From SAR116 cluster bacterium AG-337-N21 (GTDB taxonomy: Bacteria > Pseudomonadota > Alphaproteobacteria > Puniceispirillales > Marisalimonadaceae): 38,889 bases of DNA. Within the stretch, counting starts at the first letter, position 1. Each line of letters starts with the position of its first letter. Made by a program: the position numbers and the translations under genes. The DNA lies in the NCBI GenBank assembly GCA_003282145.1, contig QBZZ01000020.1:1-38889 (forward strand). The letters run 5' to 3'. Below the pieces are notes generated by a model that worked only from the letters and a program-made list of their open reading frames with translations, was not told where the DNA came from and made no database searches. Positions 29,589 to 38,889 of this stretch are shown piece after piece.

Positions 29589-30722
29589 TTAAATCTTAAG
29601 TAAAAAATGTTCCAAAATTAGAAAATAATCAAGAAGATCTTTATTAATCAATTTTTCATTGGATTTATGGCCTTCTGATCCTGTTCCAGGTCCAATATTA
29701 ATAATATTAACATCATCATCTGCAAAATATCTACCATCACTTACACCAATGGAAGATAAAAATCTTGGTTTTTTACCCGTAATAACTTCTTTAGAATTAG
29801 ATAATTCTTTTAAATAAATATTAGATTTATTTGACTTAAATGGATTTGTGCCAGTAAGGAATTTAATTTTTGCGGATTTTTCAATTTTTAAAATAAAGTT
29901 TTTAATTTCAATAAAAGCTTTTTTTACATCTTCTTTATGAGTAATTCGTCTGTCAATAATTATCTCAGTTTTAGAAGGTACAACATTTACGTTTTCTCCA
30001 CCAGATACAATCCCTATATTGATTGTAGATTTGTGTGTTCCAACATCATATTTTTTTAGTTCTTTTTTAAATTTGGAACTAAGTTCACTTATTATTTTTG
30101 CAGATTTTTCAATTGCATTTATCCCTTTATGAGGCTCACCTGCATGAGAAGTTTTACCTGAAATCTTAACCGCTACCCAAAACACACCCCTTTCTTCTAT
30201 TACAAAATTATTATTAGTTGGAGCACCTAATATTAGGGTGTGTGGCTTTATTTTATTAGATTTTCTAAGATATTCTGTACCATCAGATCCTAAATTTTCT
30301 TCATCTGTTACAAAGGTAAAATCTATATTTTCTTTAATATTAGGAAATAAACTTTTAAAATTTTTTGCTAAATACAAATGCACTGCTGCACTTCCTTTGC
30401 AATTAACAGCACCTAGACCATATGAGTAATCTTTTTCAATTTTAAGACAATATGGGTCACTTTTCCACTCGCTCAAAATCGGTCTAACAGTATCTATATG
30501 TGAGTTAAAAACAATTGATTTTTTTAAACCTTTATAATTTGAAGCTATAACATTTATTTTATCTTCATTAACGCCAAAAGATTTAACCTCTAATCCACTA
30601 TCTTTAAGATATGAATATACTAATTTACAAAAATCTTTACTACTTCCTGGAGGATAACAAGTATCTATTTTAACAAGTTCTTTTAATAAATTTAATAATT
30701 CTTTTTCGATATCTTTATTCAT
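29589..30722 (-). CDS. M20 family deacylase/peptidase (ArgE/DapE type)
   Basis: A 377-residue zinc hydrolase: H75-x-D77 in NSHIDTVRP, a GAVNCKGSAA with an aspartate replaced by Asn-Cys around the bridging ligand, TDEENLGSDG with the Glu pair, a dimer domain (GKTSHAGEPHKG) and the final GTGSEGHKSNE. The family removes acyl groups from acyl-ornithine, succinyl-diaminopimelate or peptides. The GAVNCKG stretch, where most members have G-x-x-D-M/x-K-G, is unusual: the bridging Asp is not obvious, so activity is uncertain. The ATG has only a distant AAAGG. Confidence 0.82.
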   Translation of the reverse strand: MNKDIEKELLNLLKELVKIDTCYPPGSSKDFCKLVYSYLKDSGLEVKSFGVNEDKINVIASNYKGLKKSIVFNSHIDTVRPILSEWKSDPYCLKIEKDYSYGLGAVNCKGSAAVHLYLAKNFKSLFPNIKENIDFTFVTDEENLGSDGTEYLRKSNKIKPHTLILGAPTNNNFVIEERGVFWVAVKISGKTSHAGEPHKGINAIEKSAKIISELSSKFKKELKKYDVGTHKSTINIGIVSGGENVNVVPSKTEIIIDRRITHKEDVKKAFIEIKNFILKIEKSAKIKFLTGTNPFKSNKSNIYLKELSNSKEVITGKKPRFLSSIGVSDGRYFADDDVNIINIGPGTGSEGHKSNEKLINKDLLDYFLILEHFLLKI

Positions 30723-30911: not shown

Positions 30912-31373
30912 ATGTTTAAGGAATTTTTAAAATCAAGGTTTATGTCAATAGTTTTTGTATTGGTTATTACTTCTACCAAACAATCATATTCAAATGAATT
31001 TGACAACATATCTGCTTGTGCTGGTATAGTTATTGGTGACGGAGCCTCTGAATTAAGAGACCTTGAAAATGAGGAAAATTTTGATGATGCCTTTGAACTT
31101 GCAATAAAAGCTTTCTATGGTGAAGGCTTATCAGGAAGTCGTTCTAGTGAAGATATTGTAATAGCTGAAAATATAATAGCATCAAATGTTGACAAAATTT
31201 ACATGCAACCCGAATGGACTGCAGATGTTTATCAAGAGGTAATTCGTTGCTATAGAATTCTAGGATTAAAGGTTCTCGAAAAATCAGTTATAATCAAGAT
31301 GAACATTAATATGATTAACGAATACTTAAATAAATATAAAGCTAGATTTAAAAGAATGATAAATGCTGGCTAA
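30912..31373 (+). CDS. Secreted hypothetical protein
   Basis: A 153-residue protein with a signal peptide (about residues 1-28, MFKEFLKSRF then a hydrophobic core and YSNEF). The mature part is mostly helical, with two cysteines, one in SACAGIVIG and one in IRCYRIL, that could form a disulfide in the periplasm. I do not recognise a family. An AGG ends nine bases before the ATG. It is the first gene of the accessory end of the window, next to a decayed membrane-protein gene. Confidence 0.7.
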   Translation: MFKEFLKSRFMSIVFVLVITSTKQSYSNEFDNISACAGIVIGDGASELRDLENEENFDDAFELAIKAFYGEGLSGSRSSEDIVIAENIIASNVDKIYMQPEWTADVYQEVIRCYRILGLKVLEKSVIIKMNINMINEYLNKYKARFKRMINAG

Positions 31374-31823: not shown

Positions 31824-32077
31824 TCATCTAATTCTACAAAGTTTCCTTTTCCACCCTGTTAAATCTATATCTACGTTCTTATCAAGTATGTCGACTATTG
31901 TTTTTTTTAATCATCAAAACCATAATACTTTTTTTCTTTATTCCCTCTAAAATGCTTACTTAATCCTACTATTCTAAAATTCTGTTTTTTATCCTTAAAT
32001 CCTAAAATTAGCTCAATGGAGTCATTTGATTGGTCAAAAGCCCAAAGATATTTTGAATTAAATAACCTGAAAGCCAT
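31824..32077 (-). pseudogene. Remnant of an unknown gene overlapping the end of the truncated integrase
   Basis: A frame from an ATG at 32077 to a TAA at 31907 reads MAFRLFNSKYLWAFDQSND, then ELILGFKDKKQNFRIVGL and HFRGNKEKKYYGFDD. A +1/-1 step at the run of eight T (31901-31908) continues it as TIVDILDKNVDIDLTGWKR to a stop at 31824. The protein-like reading over two frames suggests the decayed end of a gene of a different origin, joined to the integrase gene near 32085-32105. I recognise no family. Confidence 0.45.
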
Positions 32078-32745
32078 CGTGAATAATTTTTGCTATTTGC
32101 ATTGTGTTTAAGGGAGGCAAAACTTTTTACTTTATGTATCTTATAAGGGTCAGGCATGACTTCTTGTAACCCACCATTCCACAAGGCTGCGTTGTCCTTA
32201 ACATACCATTTCTTTATTTTTGCAAACCCAAAAATTCTAAATAATCTTTGTTGAAGTCTTCGAGCAGTCTCTGTTTTAGATGACCAAATAGGTAACAACA
32301 GCTCATGAAGATCATCTGTGTTAATATCAATTAGTGGTTTTTTATCCAAATAAGGTACAGCGTAATTGGTTATGGTATTCCGCCATTGTTGTTCACTTTT
32401 TGGGTTTCTCCATTCTTCCTTCATCTTTGCCGTAATATAAAGATTTGCAATGTGAGAAAACTTTTTATTTTGTTGTTTTCTTATGACCTCTTGTTTTCTT
32501 TTATCCTCGATAGGGTCTATTTTATTTATAACTAAACGCCTATAATCTTCAGCTTTCTGCCTTGCGTCTACAATTGAGATTTCTGGGAAGGTTCCAAGAC
32601 CCATTTCTCTTGATTTATTATCTATAAGATAGCGATAGGACCATTTACCCCTTCCTTGGCTTAAAATTGAGATATAAAGCCCTTTTCCATCATGATGCTT
32701 ACCATTAGTTAGATGTAATAATTGTTTGTATTTTAGTTTGTGCAT
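32008..32745 (-). pseudogene. Truncated P4-type tyrosine integrase
   Basis: The 245 residues match the N-terminal and core-binding parts of P4-like integrases (DUF4102-type): DGKGLYISILSQGRGKWSYR, then MGLGTFPEISIVDARQKAE and the IANLYITAK core-binding domain, ending at KSFASL where the catalytic domain normally begins. Intact relatives have about 400 residues with an Arg-His-Arg-Tyr catalytic domain; none of these residues follows here. The last 30 or so residues come from unrelated DNA. The protein should not recombine DNA. It diverges from the intact integrase across a 251-base region with a likely att site. Confidence 0.8.
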
Positions 32746-32996: not shown

Positions 32997-34337
32997 ATGA
33001 GCAGAAAATACCATAAAACTTTCATATCAAATAATGGTAATAACTTTTACCTTCAATTCCATATTAAAGACTGGATGAGACGATTACCAGATTTTATTAA
33101 TCTTCCTGCAAATAAGAAGAACTTTAAAGAAACTCTGAGAACATCTGACTATAATCTAGCCTATGAAAGGGCTAATAAAAGATTAAAAGAACTGCAGATT
33201 ATTGATAGACCAAAGCCTGGACCAGTTCTAGTAGGTGCAGATGCGTATTGGAAAGGCATTCAAGATTTTGAGACAATGACCGATACTGAATTAGATACAA
33301 TGTATGATTATCTAACTGAGTTAATTTCTAATAGTACAGTTTCTGACCATTTTGAAGAATTAAAAGTAACTGACGAGAAAAGTTATAGTCATGCAGAGAA
33401 TAGTCTGATGGCAATTGAAAGAGAAAAGGAGAAAAGAAGAACTAAATTTTATGATAAACCTCATCCCTATTCTGTTGGATTAAAAGCTATGTCTGATAGA
33501 TATATGGAAGAACTAGCAAGTGAAGGAAAGTCTTTTAAAACTCAAAATAAAGTTAAGAATGCATCTAAACGCTTTCTAGAATATAGAGAAATTTCTGATA
33601 TAGAATTAAGGTTAATTACTCCAAAGATAGTGAGTGATTACATAAAATTTGCTCGTTCAGAAAATAGAGCAGTAAGAACATTTAGAAACGATATTAATTA
33701 TCTTGGAGCAGTATTTGAGTTTGCTAAAAGAGATGGATATTTAAACAATATTGCTAATCCTTTTAGAGGTCAGAAAATTACTAACTTCAAAGAACCAAAT
33801 CTCAGAGAACCTTTTACATATGAGATGATACTAATGTTAATTGATTTAGCTTCAAAGGATGAAGAATTAACTCAACTCGTTTATGTGAGTTATTATACTG
33901 GGATGAGATTAGATGAAATTTTTACTGCAAAACTAGAAAGAATTGAAAATATTAGAGTGTTTAATGTTGCAGAAAAAGGAGGTAAAACAGAATCAGCTAC
34001 AAGAATAATTCCCCTTCATTCTGAACTTAAAAAATTCAAATTAACTGAATGGAAATCTCCTTCATCAACTGCACTTGGTAAGAGGTTTGGAAGGTTAAAA
34101 AATAAGATGTTGGAGCAACTTAAAATAAAAGAAGAAAACAATAAATTTGTACATCATTCTTTTAGACATGGATTTTCTACTATCTTATTAAATGCTAAAT
34201 ATTCAGAGTTGGAAATTGCTGATTTAACAGGTCATAAAAAATCTAATATCGGAAGAACTCAAGCTGGTAAATCTTACTTCTCAAGACAATCTATGACTAA
34301 GCTTATACAAATGATTGAAAGTATCCCAAAACTATAA
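32997..34337 (+). CDS. Tyrosine-type site-specific integrase (intact)
   Basis: A 446-residue recombinase. The N-terminal part (about 1-70, YLQFHIKDWMRRLP) resembles the short N-terminal domain of many phage-type integrases, a core-binding SAM-like domain spans about 160-255 and the catalytic domain follows. Catalytic residues are R304 in TGMRLDE, K330 or nearby, H387-x-x-R390 in HHSFRHGF, H413 in TGHKK and the nucleophile Y427 in KSYFS. All are present, so it should be active. It begins 92 bases from the tRNA-like att sequence and reads into the caspase region, which may be the cargo. Confidence 0.92.
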   Translation: MSRKYHKTFISNNGNNFYLQFHIKDWMRRLPDFINLPANKKNFKETLRTSDYNLAYERANKRLKELQIIDRPKPGPVLVGADAYWKGIQDFETMTDTELDTMYDYLTELISNSTVSDHFEELKVTDEKSYSHAENSLMAIEREKEKRRTKFYDKPHPYSVGLKAMSDRYMEELASEGKSFKTQNKVKNASKRFLEYREISDIELRLITPKIVSDYIKFARSENRAVRTFRNDINYLGAVFEFAKRDGYLNNIANPFRGQKITNFKEPNLREPFTYEMILMLIDLASKDEELTQLVYVSYYTGMRLDEIFTAKLERIENIRVFNVAEKGGKTESATRIIPLHSELKKFKLTEWKSPSSTALGKRFGRLKNKMLEQLKIKEENNKFVHHSFRHGFSTILLNAKYSELEIADLTGHKKSNIGRTQAGKSYFSRQSMTKLIQMIESIPKL

Positions 34338-34530
34338 AAGGCTAGGGAGGACCCACAGCCCCTATACGTTATAATATACTCAAGCTCTTACACAGATGTG
34401 TTCAAATAACTGTTAACCATTTTAATGGAGATTCAGAGTCCATACAGAGCTTTTAGTGTAATCAGAATTATGACATATGAGTGTGTATCTTTGACTCTGT
34501 AACAGGCTTAAATGAGCAGGAATGGTGGTC

Positions 34531-36126
34531 CTAGTTAAACTGTACAAGTACTCTGTCTTTATCACCTTGTAGTTCAGGTGTTTGTGAGCCAGATGATTGT
34601 TGTACAACATTCTGTTCTACATATGCGTGTAACTCACGTGCTGTAATCTTATTGTCATTGTTACTATCAGCATCACCTTCCATGCCCTTCATAAGGAAGT
34701 ATGAGAACATTCCATGTTTAGCTTCTTCTAGTGGTTTGCTTGTCTGGTCACCTGCAGCTGCACTAAAGACAGTAAAGTTGTTAGGTATGGATTGTTCTAG
34801 TGCACGGATAGCTATAGGTCTTGAGGCTATCAGCATATCTGTGCCACGAGTAGTGCCTGAGTAGCAGGTATCTAGGAATACGGTTACGCTTCTTGGGTTC
34901 TCAGAACTTATATCCCTAAATAATTTACTTCTGCTAATTGATGTTTCTTCTAATAATTCTGGCGAGCCATCAAATGGCAATAAAAATAAGTCTTTACCAT
35001 CATCCGAAGCAAGCCCATGGCCTGCAAAGAATATATATATATCTGTTTTTTCTTTTTTAATTGCTCGTCTTAGCCACTTTTTAACAGATAATAATATTGC
35101 TTTTTCATCCGCATTAGAACCACTTAAATATTTAATATTTTTTTCAATTACCCCTAGATTATTGGCAGCGAATTTTCTAAAAACTTTACTATCATTTTCT
35201 GCGTAAACAGCTTTACCAATACCAGTTTCATATCGTTCAATGCCAATTACAAGTGCGAGTGCATTAGAATTTTTGCGAATTTTATTTTTATTTGAAATTA
35301 ATTTTTCAAAATAAATACTGTCTTTATAACCGTCAACTAATCCAACAATTTTCAAAATTTTAGGTTTATTCTTTAAAATTTTCGGTATTTCCCTAGGCCC
35401 ATTAATAATACAGTGTGCATAATTTTGTTTATCACCCACGACAGCTCCATTTTCTTTTTTTACAGTTAAAACACCGTCTAACTCAGTAAAAACTGCTGTA
35501 TTTAGATGAAGTTTTGCTTTTAAGTCCACATATAAATATTGTATTTCGTCCATATGTTTCATCATTGGATAAAACTGTTTGCCAATCTCGTCCATGAAAA
35601 TTCTTAACTTAACTTTACCCTTAATATTTCCATTTACAAATACTCTCCCATCAACATTCAAAAAATTTTTAAATTCAAAAAAAACACTTTGATTCAACAT
35701 CCTTGTTATCATTCCATTTCTATTCTCTTCTTTAACACCAACAATATCAATTTGGTTTTTTGTATTAAGATTTAACATTTTATTTTTGTAAATTTTTGCG
35801 AAAATAGTTTTATTTAGGTTTTGTAAATAACTATACTTATCTTTAGGTTTCCATTCATTCTTAATTTTTTCCATGTTTTCTTTATTAGCTATAAAATAAT
35901 TTTTCCAATCAGACCTATTTTTGCCTACAGAAAATTTGCTATCAATTCTTGTTCTTACAGAATATGCATTACCATCAAATTTCAAATATGTTGATATACC
36001 CTCTTCAATGCACTTTAATTCGTATTGATTTTTATTAAATTCAATACTCAAATTTTTGTCTGCTTGAAAAGAAAAACTATTTGAGGGATAAAATAAAAGG
36101 AAAAAAAATATTAATCTATTTAACAT
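34531..36126 (-). CDS. Secreted caspase-like cysteine protease with EF-hand-like end (1)
   Basis: A 531-residue protein with a signal peptide (about 1-20). Residues 21-280 are an unrecognised, beta-rich and Lys/Asn-rich domain. From about 287 a caspase-like (peptidase C14) domain follows: ALVIGIERY, catalytic H370 in FFAGHG and catalytic C421 in LDTCYSG. Residues 487-498 form an EF-hand-like loop, D-x-N-x-D-x-K-I-T-x-x-E, so calcium may bind. The DNA for the last 130 residues is much richer in GC (50% in 34801-34860) than that for the N-terminal domain (23% in 35641-35700). It is the last gene of an operon with the lipoprotein (25-base gap) and caspase 2. Prokaryotic caspases can act in stress, development or defence; the role here is unknown. 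Confidence 0.85.
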   Translation of the reverse strand: MLNRLIFFFLLFYPSNSFSFQADKNLSIEFNKNQYELKCIEEGISTYLKFDGNAYSVRTRIDSKFSVGKNRSDWKNYFIANKENMEKIKNEWKPKDKYSYLQNLNKTIFAKIYKNKMLNLNTKNQIDIVGVKEENRNGMITRMLNQSVFFEFKNFLNVDGRVFVNGNIKGKVKLRIFMDEIGKQFYPMMKHMDEIQYLYVDLKAKLHLNTAVFTELDGVLTVKKENGAVVGDKQNYAHCIINGPREIPKILKNKPKILKIVGLVDGYKDSIYFEKLISNKNKIRKNSNALALVIGIERYETGIGKAVYAENDSKVFRKFAANNLGVIEKNIKYLSGSNADEKAILLSVKKWLRRAIKKEKTDIYIFFAGHGLASDDGKDLFLLPFDGSPELLEETSISRSKLFRDISSENPRSVTVFLDTCYSGTTRGTDMLIASRPIAIRALEQSIPNNFTVFSAAAGDQTSKPLEEAKHGMFSYFLMKGMEGDADSNNDNKITARELHAYVEQNVVQQSSGSQTPELQGDKDRVLVQFN

Positions 36127-36151
36127 TCATCTAAAGACCTAAACTATGGAA

Positions 36152-36571
36152 TCATTTCACTACTTTAACTGGTATAGCCCACCATTCTCCTATTGGGTCC
36201 CCATGTGGTTGGAAAAGGTGTTTCTTTCCTTCCCTCTGATTAGGTTTAAAACTACCTTTTATAAGAGTCATAGCTCTTACCCACATTATATCACTTAAGA
36301 ATCTCTTATCCATCTCATAATTCGCATTAACCAAAAAAGCCATTATTTCGGTATTACAGTGTTTTTTTGCTTCTAAACTACTTCTACTATCCATAACCCA
36401 ATTTTCATATTTTTCAATTTTGCCCAATGGGACTTGTGGTGCAAAAAATTTATCAAGGCAGTCTTCCAAGTCAACTTTGTAGGGATTATTTTTTGATTTA
36501 TAACTTGTGCTAGTTGTCTGACAGCTAGACAAAAAAACTGCAATAAGAATTATTATAGAAAACTTAAACAT
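36152..36571 (-). CDS. Small predicted lipoprotein of the caspase operon
   Basis: A 139-residue protein with a lipoprotein signal peptide: MFKFSIIILIAVFLSSCQTT, lipobox L-S-S-C with Cys17. It should be anchored to the outer or inner membrane. The mature part contains DCLDKFFAPQ, a second Cys in KKHCNTEI and a C-terminal PIGEWWAIPVKV; no family was recognised. It lies between the two caspase genes on the same strand, with gaps of 25 and 43 bases, so it may be a substrate, inhibitor or membrane anchor of the proteases. That link is an inference from position. Confidence 0.75.
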   Translation of the reverse strand: MFKFSIIILIAVFLSSCQTTSTSYKSKNNPYKVDLEDCLDKFFAPQVPLGKIEKYENWVMDSRSSLEAKKHCNTEIMAFLVNANYEMDKRFLSDIMWVRAMTLIKGSFKPNQREGKKHLFQPHGDPIGEWWAIPVKVVK

Positions 36572-36614
36572 AAAAACCTCCTCAGAAAAATTTAATGAAC
36601 TTAATTTTCATCTA

Positions 36615-37808
36615 CTACCCACCATTATGTATCTGCACTTTCTGGTCACGACCATAATACCTACGTGCATAATAGGTCATTGTATCTGATAAGTATTCTT
36701 TAAGCTCGTTATCACTTACCTTACCATCTTTATTACTATCACCTTCACCACTCATGGCTTTTAAGAAGTATTTGGTAAACAGACTGTGTGAGCTATCTTC
36801 TTCCCATGATGCCATCTGGTCTGAAGCTCCTGCTGCTATTACTTTGACATTATCTGGTATCATTGTTTTCTTAGCTCGAATGACTATAGGTGATGCTTTC
36901 GATACGAGTGAGCCAGATTGACTGCCACCAGAGAAACAGGCTTCAAGTATTACGGTCACTGACTTTGCGGGAAGTTTGCCTAGGTTTGAATACAAAGTTG
37001 ATAATTTATATCCAGTGAATTCTATTGTTTGTGAATCAGTATCTGTGGGTACAAGATAGGCGTCACCTTTTCCTCCTGGAGCACCATGACCTGCATAGTA
37101 GACATAAACATTAGACTTCTTAGGTTTGATATAATTGAATACCTGACCCTTGTAATTTTCTTTGTTGCCAAATACACCTAAGAGCTGTGAGCCTGTAGCA
37201 TCTTTGAGGTATATAATATTTCCTTCTTTTATACCTTTAGCTTTCATGAAGTATTGTTTTATGCCTTCTGCATCTGCATAGGCGGGATTAACATTAGGAA
37301 TGTCTTTACCCATCTTTTTGTAATTAGCATTACCAATGATAACAGCTATGTCGTTAGGGCTTAGTTTAGATTGAGCAAATTTAATGTTTATTGGTTGCTG
37401 GATAAACTTAGAAACATTTTTTTGATTTTCAAATTGAGTATCTGGTTTATTTACATTTTCTTGATATTTTTTAATAATTTTCTCAAGCTTTTTTCTTTTT
37501 TTTCTTTCTCCAATAAGTATACAGTCCAATCCTCTTCTTTTGGCTTCTTGAACTGCATTTAAATAAATTTTATTAGTTTCCCATTCAACATTGTCATCAC
37601 CAGTTGTGGCTTCTCTGCAAACAGCCTCATCTTTATAATGCTTAAAAAAGAAAATTGACCTTTCTTTCCTGCATTTTTGAATTTCTTCCTTTACTCCTGG
37701 GGCAAAAACAGACTGGCCTGTTAATTTATCACAAATGGATTTACTACTAGCAAATAGACTATTTGACGTAATTATGAACAAACAAATAAAAATTACTAAA
37801 TTTGACAT
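36615..37808 (-). CDS. Secreted caspase-like cysteine protease with EF-hand-like end (2)
   Basis: A 397-residue protein with a signal peptide (about 1-20, ending SLFA). Residues 21-145 have four cysteines (C26, C46, C64, C96) and a highly charged RKKRKKLEKIIKK segment. The caspase-like domain from about 150 has IAVIIGNANY, catalytic H241 in YYAGHGAPGG and C291 in LEACFSGG, and an EF-hand-like loop at 357-368 (D-x-N-x-D-x-K-V-S-x-x-E). The catalytic and C-terminal parts are clearly paralogous to the protease at 34531. GC content steps from 23% (37381-37440) to 48% (36901-36960) close to residue 146, the domain boundary. First gene of the operon. Confidence 0.86.
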   Translation of the reverse strand: MSNLVIFICLFIITSNSLFASSKSICDKLTGQSVFAPGVKEEIQKCRKERSIFFFKHYKDEAVCREATTGDDNVEWETNKIYLNAVQEAKRRGLDCILIGERKKRKKLEKIIKKYQENVNKPDTQFENQKNVSKFIQQPINIKFAQSKLSPNDIAVIIGNANYKKMGKDIPNVNPAYADAEGIKQYFMKAKGIKEGNIIYLKDATGSQLLGVFGNKENYKGQVFNYIKPKKSNVYVYYAGHGAPGGKGDAYLVPTDTDSQTIEFTGYKLSTLYSNLGKLPAKSVTVILEACFSGGSQSGSLVSKASPIVIRAKKTMIPDNVKVIAAGASDQMASWEEDSSHSLFTKYFLKAMSGEGDSNKDGKVSDNELKEYLSDTMTYYARRYYGRDQKVQIHNGG

Positions 37809-37859: not shown

Positions 37860-38345
37860 TTGAAATATTTATTTAGAATTTCTACAATTTTATTTTTGTT
37901 ATTTCCTGCTGTAGTTTTAGGAAATAATTTAAAAAAATGTAAAATAGAATTTGATAAATATATAGCTCCTACTATTGAAGGTTGTGACATAGTGATTAGT
38001 AAGAGGGGTAATACATCAAATTATAATTGTAAGTCTAATTTAAAACCCAAAATTACAGACATGCTATTGGGAATGTTAAGAAATCTACAATCTAATGAAT
38101 TTCCAACTTACGGTGATGTTTTTTTAAAAATTTCTCAAAATAGTGTGTCCGGAACTATTGAGTCACTTGACCCAAAACAAATTGATAATTTTTCATTTCC
38201 ATCTCTAAATAAAATTTCAACTGATAAATATTCTGGTATGTTAGATAATGGCATAAAAATGACTATAATAGCTGATGACAAAATCCAAATTACTTTTGCT
38301 GGAGGTTATGGCAAAATTTACGTAGATGGCTTTTGCGAAAACTGA
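37860..38345 (+). CDS. Secreted hypothetical protein, divergent from the caspase operon
   Basis: A 161-residue protein that begins with TTG, chosen by AAGGA about ten bases upstream. It has a signal peptide ending near VLG at about residue 21, then a mature domain with four cysteines (for example KKCKIEF, GCDIV, YNCKSN and the last FCEN) that could form two disulfides. The C-terminal ITFAGGYGKIYVDGFCEN looks beta-rich. I recognise no family. It is divergent from the caspase operon with only 51 bases between, so both may share a regulatory region. Confidence 0.7.
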   Translation: MKYLFRISTILFLLFPAVVLGNNLKKCKIEFDKYIAPTIEGCDIVISKRGNTSNYNCKSNLKPKITDMLLGMLRNLQSNEFPTYGDVFLKISQNSVSGTIESLDPKQIDNFSFPSLNKISTDKYSGMLDNGIKMTIIADDKIQITFAGGYGKIYVDGFCEN

Positions 38346-38474: not shown

Positions 38475-38494
38475 ATATATTTTCTAAAATATAT
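38475..38494 (-). terminator. AT-only hairpin at the end of the last gene
   Basis: ATATATTTT at 38475-38483 and AAAATATAT at 38486-38494 form a perfect 9-base inverted repeat around CT, right at the stop of the minus-strand gene. With no G:C pairs the stem would be weak, so it is only a possible terminator. Confidence 0.25.
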
Positions 38495-38856
38495 TAATTA
38501 CGAGTGCATGTTCCCCAAACAGGAGATATGTCTCTATATCTTTTAAAGTCTACATCCACTGCAATTTTATTATTGCTTGTAAAATAAGTATATTTCAGTA
38601 CAACCTCAGTTTTTTCGTTACTTACGTCAACATCCCATCGGTATTTAATACCACTTTTTTTTAGGGGAGCAGAAAATTTCCATAATTTAACTTTATCATC
38701 TTCAATAGTAATTTTTTGATTTTCTGGAACCCAAGATTTTGCCATTTTTATTGGGTAAGATGATTGAGAATAATCGTCAAATAAACAATTTAAAGTCTCA
38801 GCATTTAAACTTAAAGGAAGTAGTATTATAGATAATAATATTAAATGTAGTTTCAT
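38494..38856 (-). CDS. Small secreted hypothetical protein
   Basis: A 120-residue protein with a signal peptide (MKLHLILLSIILLPLSLNAE) and a small beta-rich mature domain containing two cysteines, LNCLF near the start and GTCTRN at the end, likely joined by a disulfide. The frame opens at an ATG at 38868, but GGAG lies six bases before the ATG at 38856, so the later start is chosen. No family was recognised. It completes a run of small secreted proteins around the caspase operon. Confidence 0.68.
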   Translation of the reverse strand: MKLHLILLSIILLPLSLNAETLNCLFDDYSQSSYPIKMAKSWVPENQKITIEDDKVKLWKFSAPLKKSGIKYRWDVDVSNEKTEVVLKYTYFTSNNKIAVDVDFKRYRDISPVWGTCTRN

Positions 38857-38889
38857 GTTAATCTCCATTTATTTTACAAAAATGTATAT

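What the first reader, a model, noticed from the sequence alone, without database searches (positions are those of the whole stretch)
34531..37808. Operon of two secreted, EF-hand-ending caspase-like proteases around a lipoprotein
Two paralogous proteases with intact His/Cys dyads (H370/C421 and H241/C291), signal peptides and C-terminal EF-hand-like loops flank a small lipoprotein, all on one strand with 25- and 43-base gaps. Most bacterial caspases known from defence are cytoplasmic and tied to sensor domains; these should work outside the cytoplasm, possibly with calcium control, and the lipoprotein may be an anchor, substrate or inhibitor. The neighbouring integrase suggests mobile carriage. 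I know no described system of this make-up.
Basis: partly seen in the sequence, partly recalled or inferred. Interest (0 to 1): 0.78.

Follow-up and report, generated by a model that had tools for sequence, protein, structure and literature searches.

The report
Secreted modular caspases in marine bacteria
A marine SAR116-type bacterium carries two exported, probably calcium-binding relatives of the caspase proteases beside a lipoprotein; they belong to a larger family with a constant protease end and swappable front ends, carried in variable, possibly cassette-like DNA.

Summary
Two Peptidase_C14 proteases (A, 34531-36126; B, 36615-37808; minus strand) flank a 139-aa lipoprotein with 25- and 43-base gaps. 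Both have intact His/Cys dyads and one canonical EF-hand loop. Export is likely for B and the lipoprotein, weaker for A.

The caspase-lipoprotein-caspase trio is not conserved: no match to the lipoprotein in 60 other genomes. Its elements recur: 5 of 7 type-B caspases lie within 5 kb of a type-A one, and 16 of 74 named loci have tandem caspases.

The real feature is modular. A conserved C-terminal protease with a calcium loop is joined to unrelated N-termini, and an N-terminus has moved between A and B classes. The genome has six copies on three contigs; the window locus is part of an island absent from two close relatives.

Caspase A ends at a ~110-bp imperfect-palindrome repeat. In this genus such repeats form mostly same-orientation arrays, often near DUF6538 tyrosine recombinases. 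This looks integron-like, but integron integrase and classical attC cores were not found.

Function is inferred: exported, calcium-dependent effector proteases of envelope surveillance or conflict. New variant of a known kind.

The parts
34531..36126 (-). Caspase A (531 aa): weak signal peptide, orphan N-terminal region (about 1-260), type-A C14 domain (about 275-531)
35017..35019 (-). catalytic His370 of A
   Evidence: alignment columns
34864..34866 (-). catalytic Cys421 of A
34633..34668 (-). EF-hand loop of A, residues 487-498
36152..36571 (-). lipoprotein, 139 aa, lipobox LSSC with Cys17, no family
36615..37808 (-). Caspase B (397 aa): signal peptide, Cys-bracketed N-terminal module, type-B C14 domain
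37086..37088 (-). catalytic His241 of B
36936..36938 (-). catalytic Cys291 of B
   Evidence: codon read
36705..36740 (-). EF-hand loop of B, residues 357-368
37860..38345 (+). 161-aa secreted protein; weakly related to the N-terminal region of a type-B caspase in G012, clearly to a free 171-aa protein beside that gene
38494..38868 (-). 124-aa secreted protein, 91% identical to the gene beside B in G012
34347..34530 (-). imperfect-palindrome repeat (EL) and its tail, directly after the stop codon of A
32997..34337 (+). tyrosine recombinase, 446 aa, convergent with and about 10 bases from EL
32008..32745 (-). integrase of another type, 245 aa; matches the arm and central domains, no catalytic-domain match
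30912..31373 (+). 153-aa secreted protein that recurs on caspase or array contigs of other genomes; inferred first gene of the island

Best explanation
A and B are probably exported, paracaspase-like C14 cysteine proteases of a diversified family in SAR116 (Puniceispirillales) and other bacteria, many of them pelagic. Shown by sequence: intact dyads; a conserved C-terminal part with one EF-hand loop; largely unrelated N-termini, one of them exchanged between A and B classes; clustering in a variable island; a caspase 3' end that is shared as DNA between genes. Inferred: the proteins work in the periplasm or at the envelope. The calcium loop lets the protease fold and act only after export, because cytoplasmic calcium is low and seawater calcium is high. 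The N-terminal module decides where the protease sits and what it responds to. The lipoprotein made just before A holds or presents it at a membrane, or is its first substrate. The likeliest use is as a variable effector of envelope surveillance or conflict (phage, predator or competitor), because content differs strongly between close relatives. Diversity arises by swapping 5' parts onto a constant 3' part and by gain and loss of single genes.
For: Family, dyads and fold. His and Cys both visible in 62 of 64 relatives listed; one has Phe for Cys, one is cut before the His. EF pattern in 115 of 127 type-A and 6 of 7 type-B sequences; the seventh B is cut by a contig end. Simple export rule met by 97 of 118 caspases with a start, against 264 of 617 other ORFs of 200 aa or more in the same loci. 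Of 115 caspases with a readable neighbour upstream, 24 follow another caspase within 150 nt and 48 another same-strand gene, 31 of these 48 predicted exported. The B N-terminus matches the N-terminus of a type-A caspase in G012. The A N-terminus matches no other ORF fetched by then. GC 38.7% in the constant part of A against 25.8% in its N-terminus; 38.2 against 29.2% in B. Empty site in G009 and G015. One-gene caspase insertion.
Against: No substrate, expression, localisation or calcium data. A fails the stricter export rule, and 264 of 617 control ORFs pass it, so the rule is loose. Only 31 of 101 genomes, and 8 of 38 near-complete ones, have any C14 match, so the function is dispensable. 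PADLOC's caspase model matches only in part, and nothing else of defence was found among the 6 window proteins scanned. The periplasm of a marine cell is probably always calcium-rich, so calcium may be structural rather than regulatory. The AlphaFold model of A is poor over 91-265; Foldseek TM-scores of the best hits are only 0.34 (query) and 0.48 (target) for A, 0.40 and 0.43 for B.
Confidence: 0.45

Rival explanations
1. Housekeeping maturation proteases: the caspases trim or activate envelope proteins, the lipoprotein among them, much as C13/C14-type maturases do.
For: Predicted exported partners directly upstream in 31 of 48 non-caspase cases; some lipoprotein-caspase pairs recur in several genomes (CASRPSS type in G066, G068, G070; CQTPKYSKV/CQTPRYQKV type before caspases in G000, G012, G031, G032, G066).
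Against: C14 in 31 of 101 genomes only, with up to six copies in some and none in others, though many genomes are incomplete; the N-termini and partners differ too much for one conserved substrate.
Confidence: 0.25
2. Polymorphic secreted toxins: the variable part aims the protease at competitors or grazers, and the small secreted proteins or the lipoprotein protect the producer.
For: Constant catalytic end with exchangeable other end; a free-standing protein weakly like an N-terminal module beside B (window 37860-38345 against the B N-terminus of G012, 24% over 143 residues; E 0.005 in the full ORF set); decaying remnants.
Against: I did not search for a release machinery; the lipoprotein is not constant enough to be a shared immunity protein; the variable part is at the other end compared with known polymorphic toxins (recalled).
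Confidence: 0.15
3. Passengers of a recombination-prone island with little function for the cell.
For: Island absent from two close relatives; relics with stops and one Cys-to-Phe copy.
Against: Dyads kept in 62 of 64, calcium ligands kept in 42-46 of 46, and near-identical protein ends despite diverged DNA imply selection.
Confidence: 0.15

Closest known systems
Bacterial metacaspases with MORN or Sel1 repeats (aquatic survey, PMC4933709, one passage seen)
   Same: C14 domain behind repeat domains; aquatic bacteria. At E up to 0.01, MORN in 15 and Sel1 in 4 of 58 relatives scanned
   Different: The passage seen does not describe export, calcium loop, operons or exchange of N-termini; the window pair has neither repeat
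Orthocaspases / metacaspases with EF-hand or Ig-like domains (PMC6426788, passages seen: EF-hand in 7 and Big_7 in 15 archaeal proteins)
   Same: His/Cys dyad, extra EF-hand and Ig-like parts; Glucodextran_B (Ig-like, recalled) in 26 of 58 relatives at E up to 0.01, below the curated cut-off in the three shown
   Different: Here the loop is a conserved part of the C-terminal region itself, and the proteins are probably exported
Paracaspase MALT1 (PDB 8v4x, 7paw, 3uo8, 3v4o)
   Same: Best Foldseek matches of both models, E 7.5e-11 for A and 7.2e-10 for B
   Different: 13-18% identity, no calcium loop known to me; eukaryotic and cytoplasmic (recalled)
Integrons / CALIN cassette arrays (PMC9668308, passages seen)
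   Same: Imperfect palindromes behind genes, mostly one orientation, a nearby tyrosine recombinase in part of the cases, one-unit gain or loss
   Different: No IntI above the curated cut-off in 61 genomes; no GTTRRRY/RYYYAAC core pair; that paper calls integrons entirely absent from Alphaproteobacteria

Membership tests
Peptidase family C14 (PF00656) | profile match above the curated cut-off | tested here: met
   A 58.7, B 53.8 bits; cut-off 21.4
Peptidase family C14 (PF00656) | His and Cys catalytic dyad | tested here: met
   H370/C421, H241/C291
Peptidase family C14 (PF00656) | caspase fold | tested here: met
   AlphaFold domain models match MALT1, caspases and metacaspases by Foldseek, with modest TM-scores
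Peptidase family C14 (PF00656) | proteolytic activity after Arg/Lys | not testable with these tools
   no experiment
EACC1-associated caspase (NCBIfam NF047832) | score above 140 bits | tested here: not met
   66.4 and 73.3 bits
PADLOC defence caspase (PDLC02987) | full-length match in a defence context | tested here: not met
   E 3e-10 and 1e-4, positions 3-130 and 5-130 of 453 only; no other hit among 6 proteins scanned
EF-hand protein | canonical 12-residue loop D-x-[DN]-x-D-x-x-[ILV]-x-x-x-E | tested here: met
   both proteins, conserved columns
EF-hand protein | Pfam EF-hand above cut-off, or paired EF-hands | tested here: not met
   14.5 bits against 25.4 for B, none for A; one loop only
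Secreted / lipoprotein | signal peptide or lipobox | tested here: inconclusive
   rule-based only: B and lipoprotein pass, A passes the looser and fails the stricter rule
Integron (for the repeat arrays) | IntI integrase | tested here: not met
   0 of 61 genomes over the TIGR02249 cut-off; 57 have only weaker matches, as do all 14 control genomes
Integron (for the repeat arrays) | imperfect-palindrome sites behind cassette genes, one orientation | tested here: met
   24 of 28 adjacent pairs same orientation, 24 of 29 with a short hit left out at first; 28 of 38 directly behind a same-strand gene; 625 of 840 arm cells paired
Integron (for the repeat arrays) | R'' RYYYAAC and R' GTTRRRY cores (recalled consensus) | tested here: not met
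   3' end GTTAACA; no consistent 5' core by eye

The most novel reading that the evidence does not exclude
SAR116 bacteria have an integron-like cassette system of a new kind: ~110-bp imperfect-palindrome sites worked by DUF6538-type tyrosine recombinases instead of IntI. It moves single genes, among them exported calcium-dependent caspases, and together with recombination in the constant caspase 3' end it builds a combinatorial repertoire of envelope proteases, in a class where integrons are reported absent.
Probability: 0.35. Interest if true: 0.87.

Novelty: new variant of a known kind. Interest (0 to 1): 0.62.

Why it matters
SAR116 and SAR11 are abundant ocean bacteria (recalled). Several copies of exported caspase-like proteases with exchangeable front ends in small genomes would point to an unstudied layer of envelope defence or signalling, and a calcium loop gives a direct test of how such proteases are kept off inside the cell. 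If the repeat arrays are a recombinase-driven cassette system, they would fill a gap: one paper states that integrons are missing from Alphaproteobacteria (PMC9668308, passage seen).

Tried and rejected
Homogenisation of caspase ends by recent gene conversion as a general rule: rejected. Median DNA identity of the last codons is about the same within and between genomes; the 90th percentile within genomes is higher in the middle of the domain (0.84-0.87 against 0.72-0.82). Window A and the 714-aa caspase of C18, whose protein ends are nearly identical, are not among the pairs that reach 93% DNA identity in any 20-codon stretch. It holds for single pairs: G012 and tracts in G000, G034, G047 and G053. 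My de-duplication by the last 100 residues hid at least one gene (G012, L043:416-3454); one search uses another key, longer ends.

A marine/freshwater split of the calcium loop: suggested by the group tally, but the search pattern there was faulty. The columns and the pattern show that the betaproteobacterial copies of L156, L157 and L160 keep the loop and that it is lost or degenerate in the Magnetospirillum-like ones and a few others. Tally discarded.

Known RNA or attC family in Rfam: none in the window; only tRNAs above cut-off in six array loci. RNAalifold on the repeat alignment found no pairs, perhaps because of gapped columns. Single-strand DNA folding: one strand with z of -2.1 to -5.9 in five of seven copies tried, none in the window copy or in L206:2441 (window). 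In one search the pairing is mostly a matter of the consensus: with partners shuffled between sequences 612 cells still pair on average (3 of 500 shuffles reach 625), and slid controls reach more double-sided changes (21 against 15). So covariation is weak; the support is the paired fraction.

Phage origin: no DNA or protein match in 50,697 phage records. Plasmids: 31 records, all below 60% identity. tRNA as island site: none in the window.

Literature: SAR116 with metacaspase 0 papers; SAR116 with integron 1 paper, on Vibrio arrays; SAR11 with caspase 38 papers, none of the 10 listed being by title about SAR11 caspases. Papers were seen as search listings with abstract starts or passages (PMC3501461, PMC4933709, PMC6426788, PMC9668308); none was read whole.
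Full report
What is there. The window is contig C20 of a 2.04-Mb, 82% complete genome. Near its right end, on the minus strand, lie caspase B (397 aa), a 139-aa lipoprotein and caspase A (531 aa), with gaps of 43 and 25 bases. Both caspases pass the Peptidase_C14 cut-off. The dyads are H370/C421 and H241/C291. AlphaFold models give a confident caspase domain for A (10-residue blocks from 271 on at 80 or above, but for two near 61) and a fair one for B; the best solved matches are MALT1 paracaspase structures, E 7.5e-11 for A and 7.2e-10 for B, with modest TM-scores. Each protein has one canonical EF-hand loop near its end; Pfam's EF-hand model does not reach its cut-off, but the ligand columns hold D 42, N 42, D 46 and E 43 of 46 in a broad alignment.

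Organism. The taxonomy tool maps 'SAR116 cluster' to Puniceispirillales.

How common. The genome has six C14 genes on three contigs. Of 101 genomes searched, its own included, 31 have at least one; of 38 near-complete ones, 8. The same domain was found in Pelagibacteraceae, marine gammaproteobacteria, Rhodospirillaceae and freshwater betaproteobacteria (436 relatives among a capped list, 74 loci kept). Tandem caspase genes (same strand, gap up to 120 bases) occur in 16 of these 74 loci, 10 of them Pelagibacteraceae; one Candidatus Puniceispirillum contig has five in a row (L106).

Gene order. The lipoprotein has no match in 60 other genomes nor elsewhere among the 1,561 ORFs fetched by then. 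The pairing does recur: of seven type-B copies, five have a type-A gene within 5 kb (window, G000:C28, G012:C13, G024:C5, G034:C22); two do not in the stretches read (G075:C1, G024:C1). Of 115 caspases with a readable upstream neighbour, 24 follow a caspase within 150 nt, 48 follow another same-strand gene, 31 of which look exported, and 43 follow none. Several lipoprotein families take this upstream place.

Modularity. The C-terminal domains of 18 other A-type proteins are 50-70% identical to that of window A, while its first 280 residues match no other ORF fetched by then. The N-terminus of window B is related to that of the type-A caspase beside B in G012 (36% over 138 residues; 34% over 142, E 2.8e-17), although the two caspase classes are only about 31% identical. 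The 161-aa secreted protein beside B is clearly related to a free 171-aa protein beside B in G012 (38%, 2.6e-26) and weakly to the N-terminus of that B caspase (24% over 143 residues; E 0.005 in the full ORF set; 1e-5 in a set of six), so such modules may also exist alone. GC jumps from 25.8 to 38.7% inside A and from 29.2 to 38.2% inside B. In G012 two A-type genes with unrelated N-termini are identical over the last ~100 codons and at least 415 bases beyond the stop, after 46-83% identity upstream. At E up to 0.01, MORN repeats occur in 15, Sel1 in 4 and Glucodextran_B in 26 of 58 relatives scanned.

Island. In the close relatives G009 and G015 the peptidase gene (window 29589-30722) is followed by a 124-aa gene, LepA- and LeuA-like genes (these two names are recalled from the first residues). 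In G000 the LepA-side genes lie on contig C28, which starts in a type-B caspase and also holds a type-A one. So the window right of 30.9 kb and C28 1-7.2 kb are very probably the two sides of one island with four caspases; I infer this from gene order and did not join the contigs, which share no exact end overlap of 20-199 bases. The C28 type-B copy has Phe for the catalytic Cys. On C18, G000 has a 714-aa caspase between a lipoprotein and a MORN caspase that G012 lacks; the extra 2,225 bases are almost exactly that gene, and the flanks are 81 and 91% identical.

Repeat arrays. The non-coding DNA after the stop of A (34347-34530) is a repeat. A 200-base query of this kind matched 37 of 61 genomes. 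The core is about 110 bases, an imperfect palindrome with 22-base arms ending mostly in TGGTTAACA: 625 of 840 arm cells pair in 39 copies, at most 403 when slid, but 612 on average when partners are shuffled between sequences, so the palindrome is real and covariation weak. Of 28 neighbouring genus pairs within 5 kb, 24 have the same orientation (P 0.0002); with one short hit first left out, 24 of 29 (P 0.0005); within 2 kb, 16 of 17. Of 38 repeats examined in 16 loci, 28 follow a same-strand gene within 200 bases, 9 an opposite-strand one and 1 neither. Of 34 type-A caspases of the genus with a readable end, 12 have the repeat directly behind. By eye, genes between repeats are mostly about 100-400 codons and occur in different orders in different genomes; many homology blocks do not end at a repeat. 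G008 has one extra 620-base unit (repeat plus a 121-aa gene) that G011 lacks; flanks are 96 and 98% identical and the break falls in an imperfect 33-base direct repeat (30 of 33) with TATCTAGCCATACCC. The systematic search for such differences gave five rows, of which this and the C18 caspase are the clean ones.

Recombinase. No IntI passes its cut-off in 61 genomes. A DUF6538-type tyrosine recombinase has matches in 48 of 61 genomes. Of 34 genus matches used, 12 lie within 5 kb of a repeat, two of them pieces of one gene, against 0.45 expected by uniform placement without contig-edge correction. Of all 18 such rows in 14 genomes, 12 are convergent, and six are 286-363 bases from the repeat; 66 of 84 matches have no repeat within 5 kb. 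The window's 446-aa recombinase is likewise convergent, about 10 bases from the repeat. Its close relative was found in one other of the 37 genus genomes, G035 (84%), which has no C14 match.

How it may work. Shown: families, motifs, order, exchange. Inferred: export of A, calcium dependence, the role of the lipoprotein, and use in envelope surveillance or conflict. The simplest reading is a calcium-requiring protease that is silent in the cytoplasm and active after export, with the N-terminus giving place and trigger. I give this 0.45; rivals are maturation proteases, polymorphic toxins and passengers.

Limits. Many relatives are single-cell or metagenome assemblies (titles); amplification chimeras could fake inverted copies such as those of G012. 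Several contigs end in caspase genes, so copy numbers are lower limits. Export predictions are rule-based. Counts depend on the loci fetched; the loci were chosen for C14 or repeat matches.

Noticed in passing
window 34347-34530; L204, L206, L209, L210, L214: A ~110-bp imperfect-palindrome repeat forms mostly same-orientation arrays in many SAR116 genomes, in part beside DUF6538 tyrosine recombinases; integron-like without IntI.
   Followed up: partly
L208:3132-3751 against L218:6489-6521: One 620-base unit (repeat plus a 121-aa gene with a weak cupin match) is present in G008 and absent from G011, with the break in an imperfect 33-base direct repeat.
   Followed up: yes
L106:2-9527: Five caspase genes in tandem (gaps 5, -1, 5, 79) on a Candidatus Puniceispirillum contig.
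   Followed up: no
L008:1-1737: Type-B caspase with EAFFSG, Phe in place of the catalytic Cys, at a contig start; a possible pseudo-protease.
   Followed up: no
G024:C5:38366-38467, G014:C1:26623-26763, G032:C20:15434-15988: Remnants of caspase domains with stop codons, signs of turnover.
   Followed up: no
L008:1776-3230, L041:4229-5668, L068: A ~480-aa protein (SRPLDVHRWSDHPE type, related by eye; no Pfam match for the L008 copy) lies next to caspases in two genera; the L068 copy is short.
   Followed up: no
L040:14074-14406, L045:7188-7523, L206:2090-2431: Three small array proteins of 111-114 aa match DUF6974; similar ORFs recur by eye in other arrays.
   Followed up: no
L216:2039-2112: A tRNA gene lies about 70 bases from the 5' end of the DUF6538 recombinase on G016:C31, which starts with a caspase end; a possible island attachment site.
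   Followed up: no
window B residues 63-96 and other caspases: A short module (C-x-EA...W...EAKRRGL-x-C) recurs in caspase N-termini (14 matches to a strict pattern in 131 N-termini) and gave no Pfam match in window B.
   Followed up: partly
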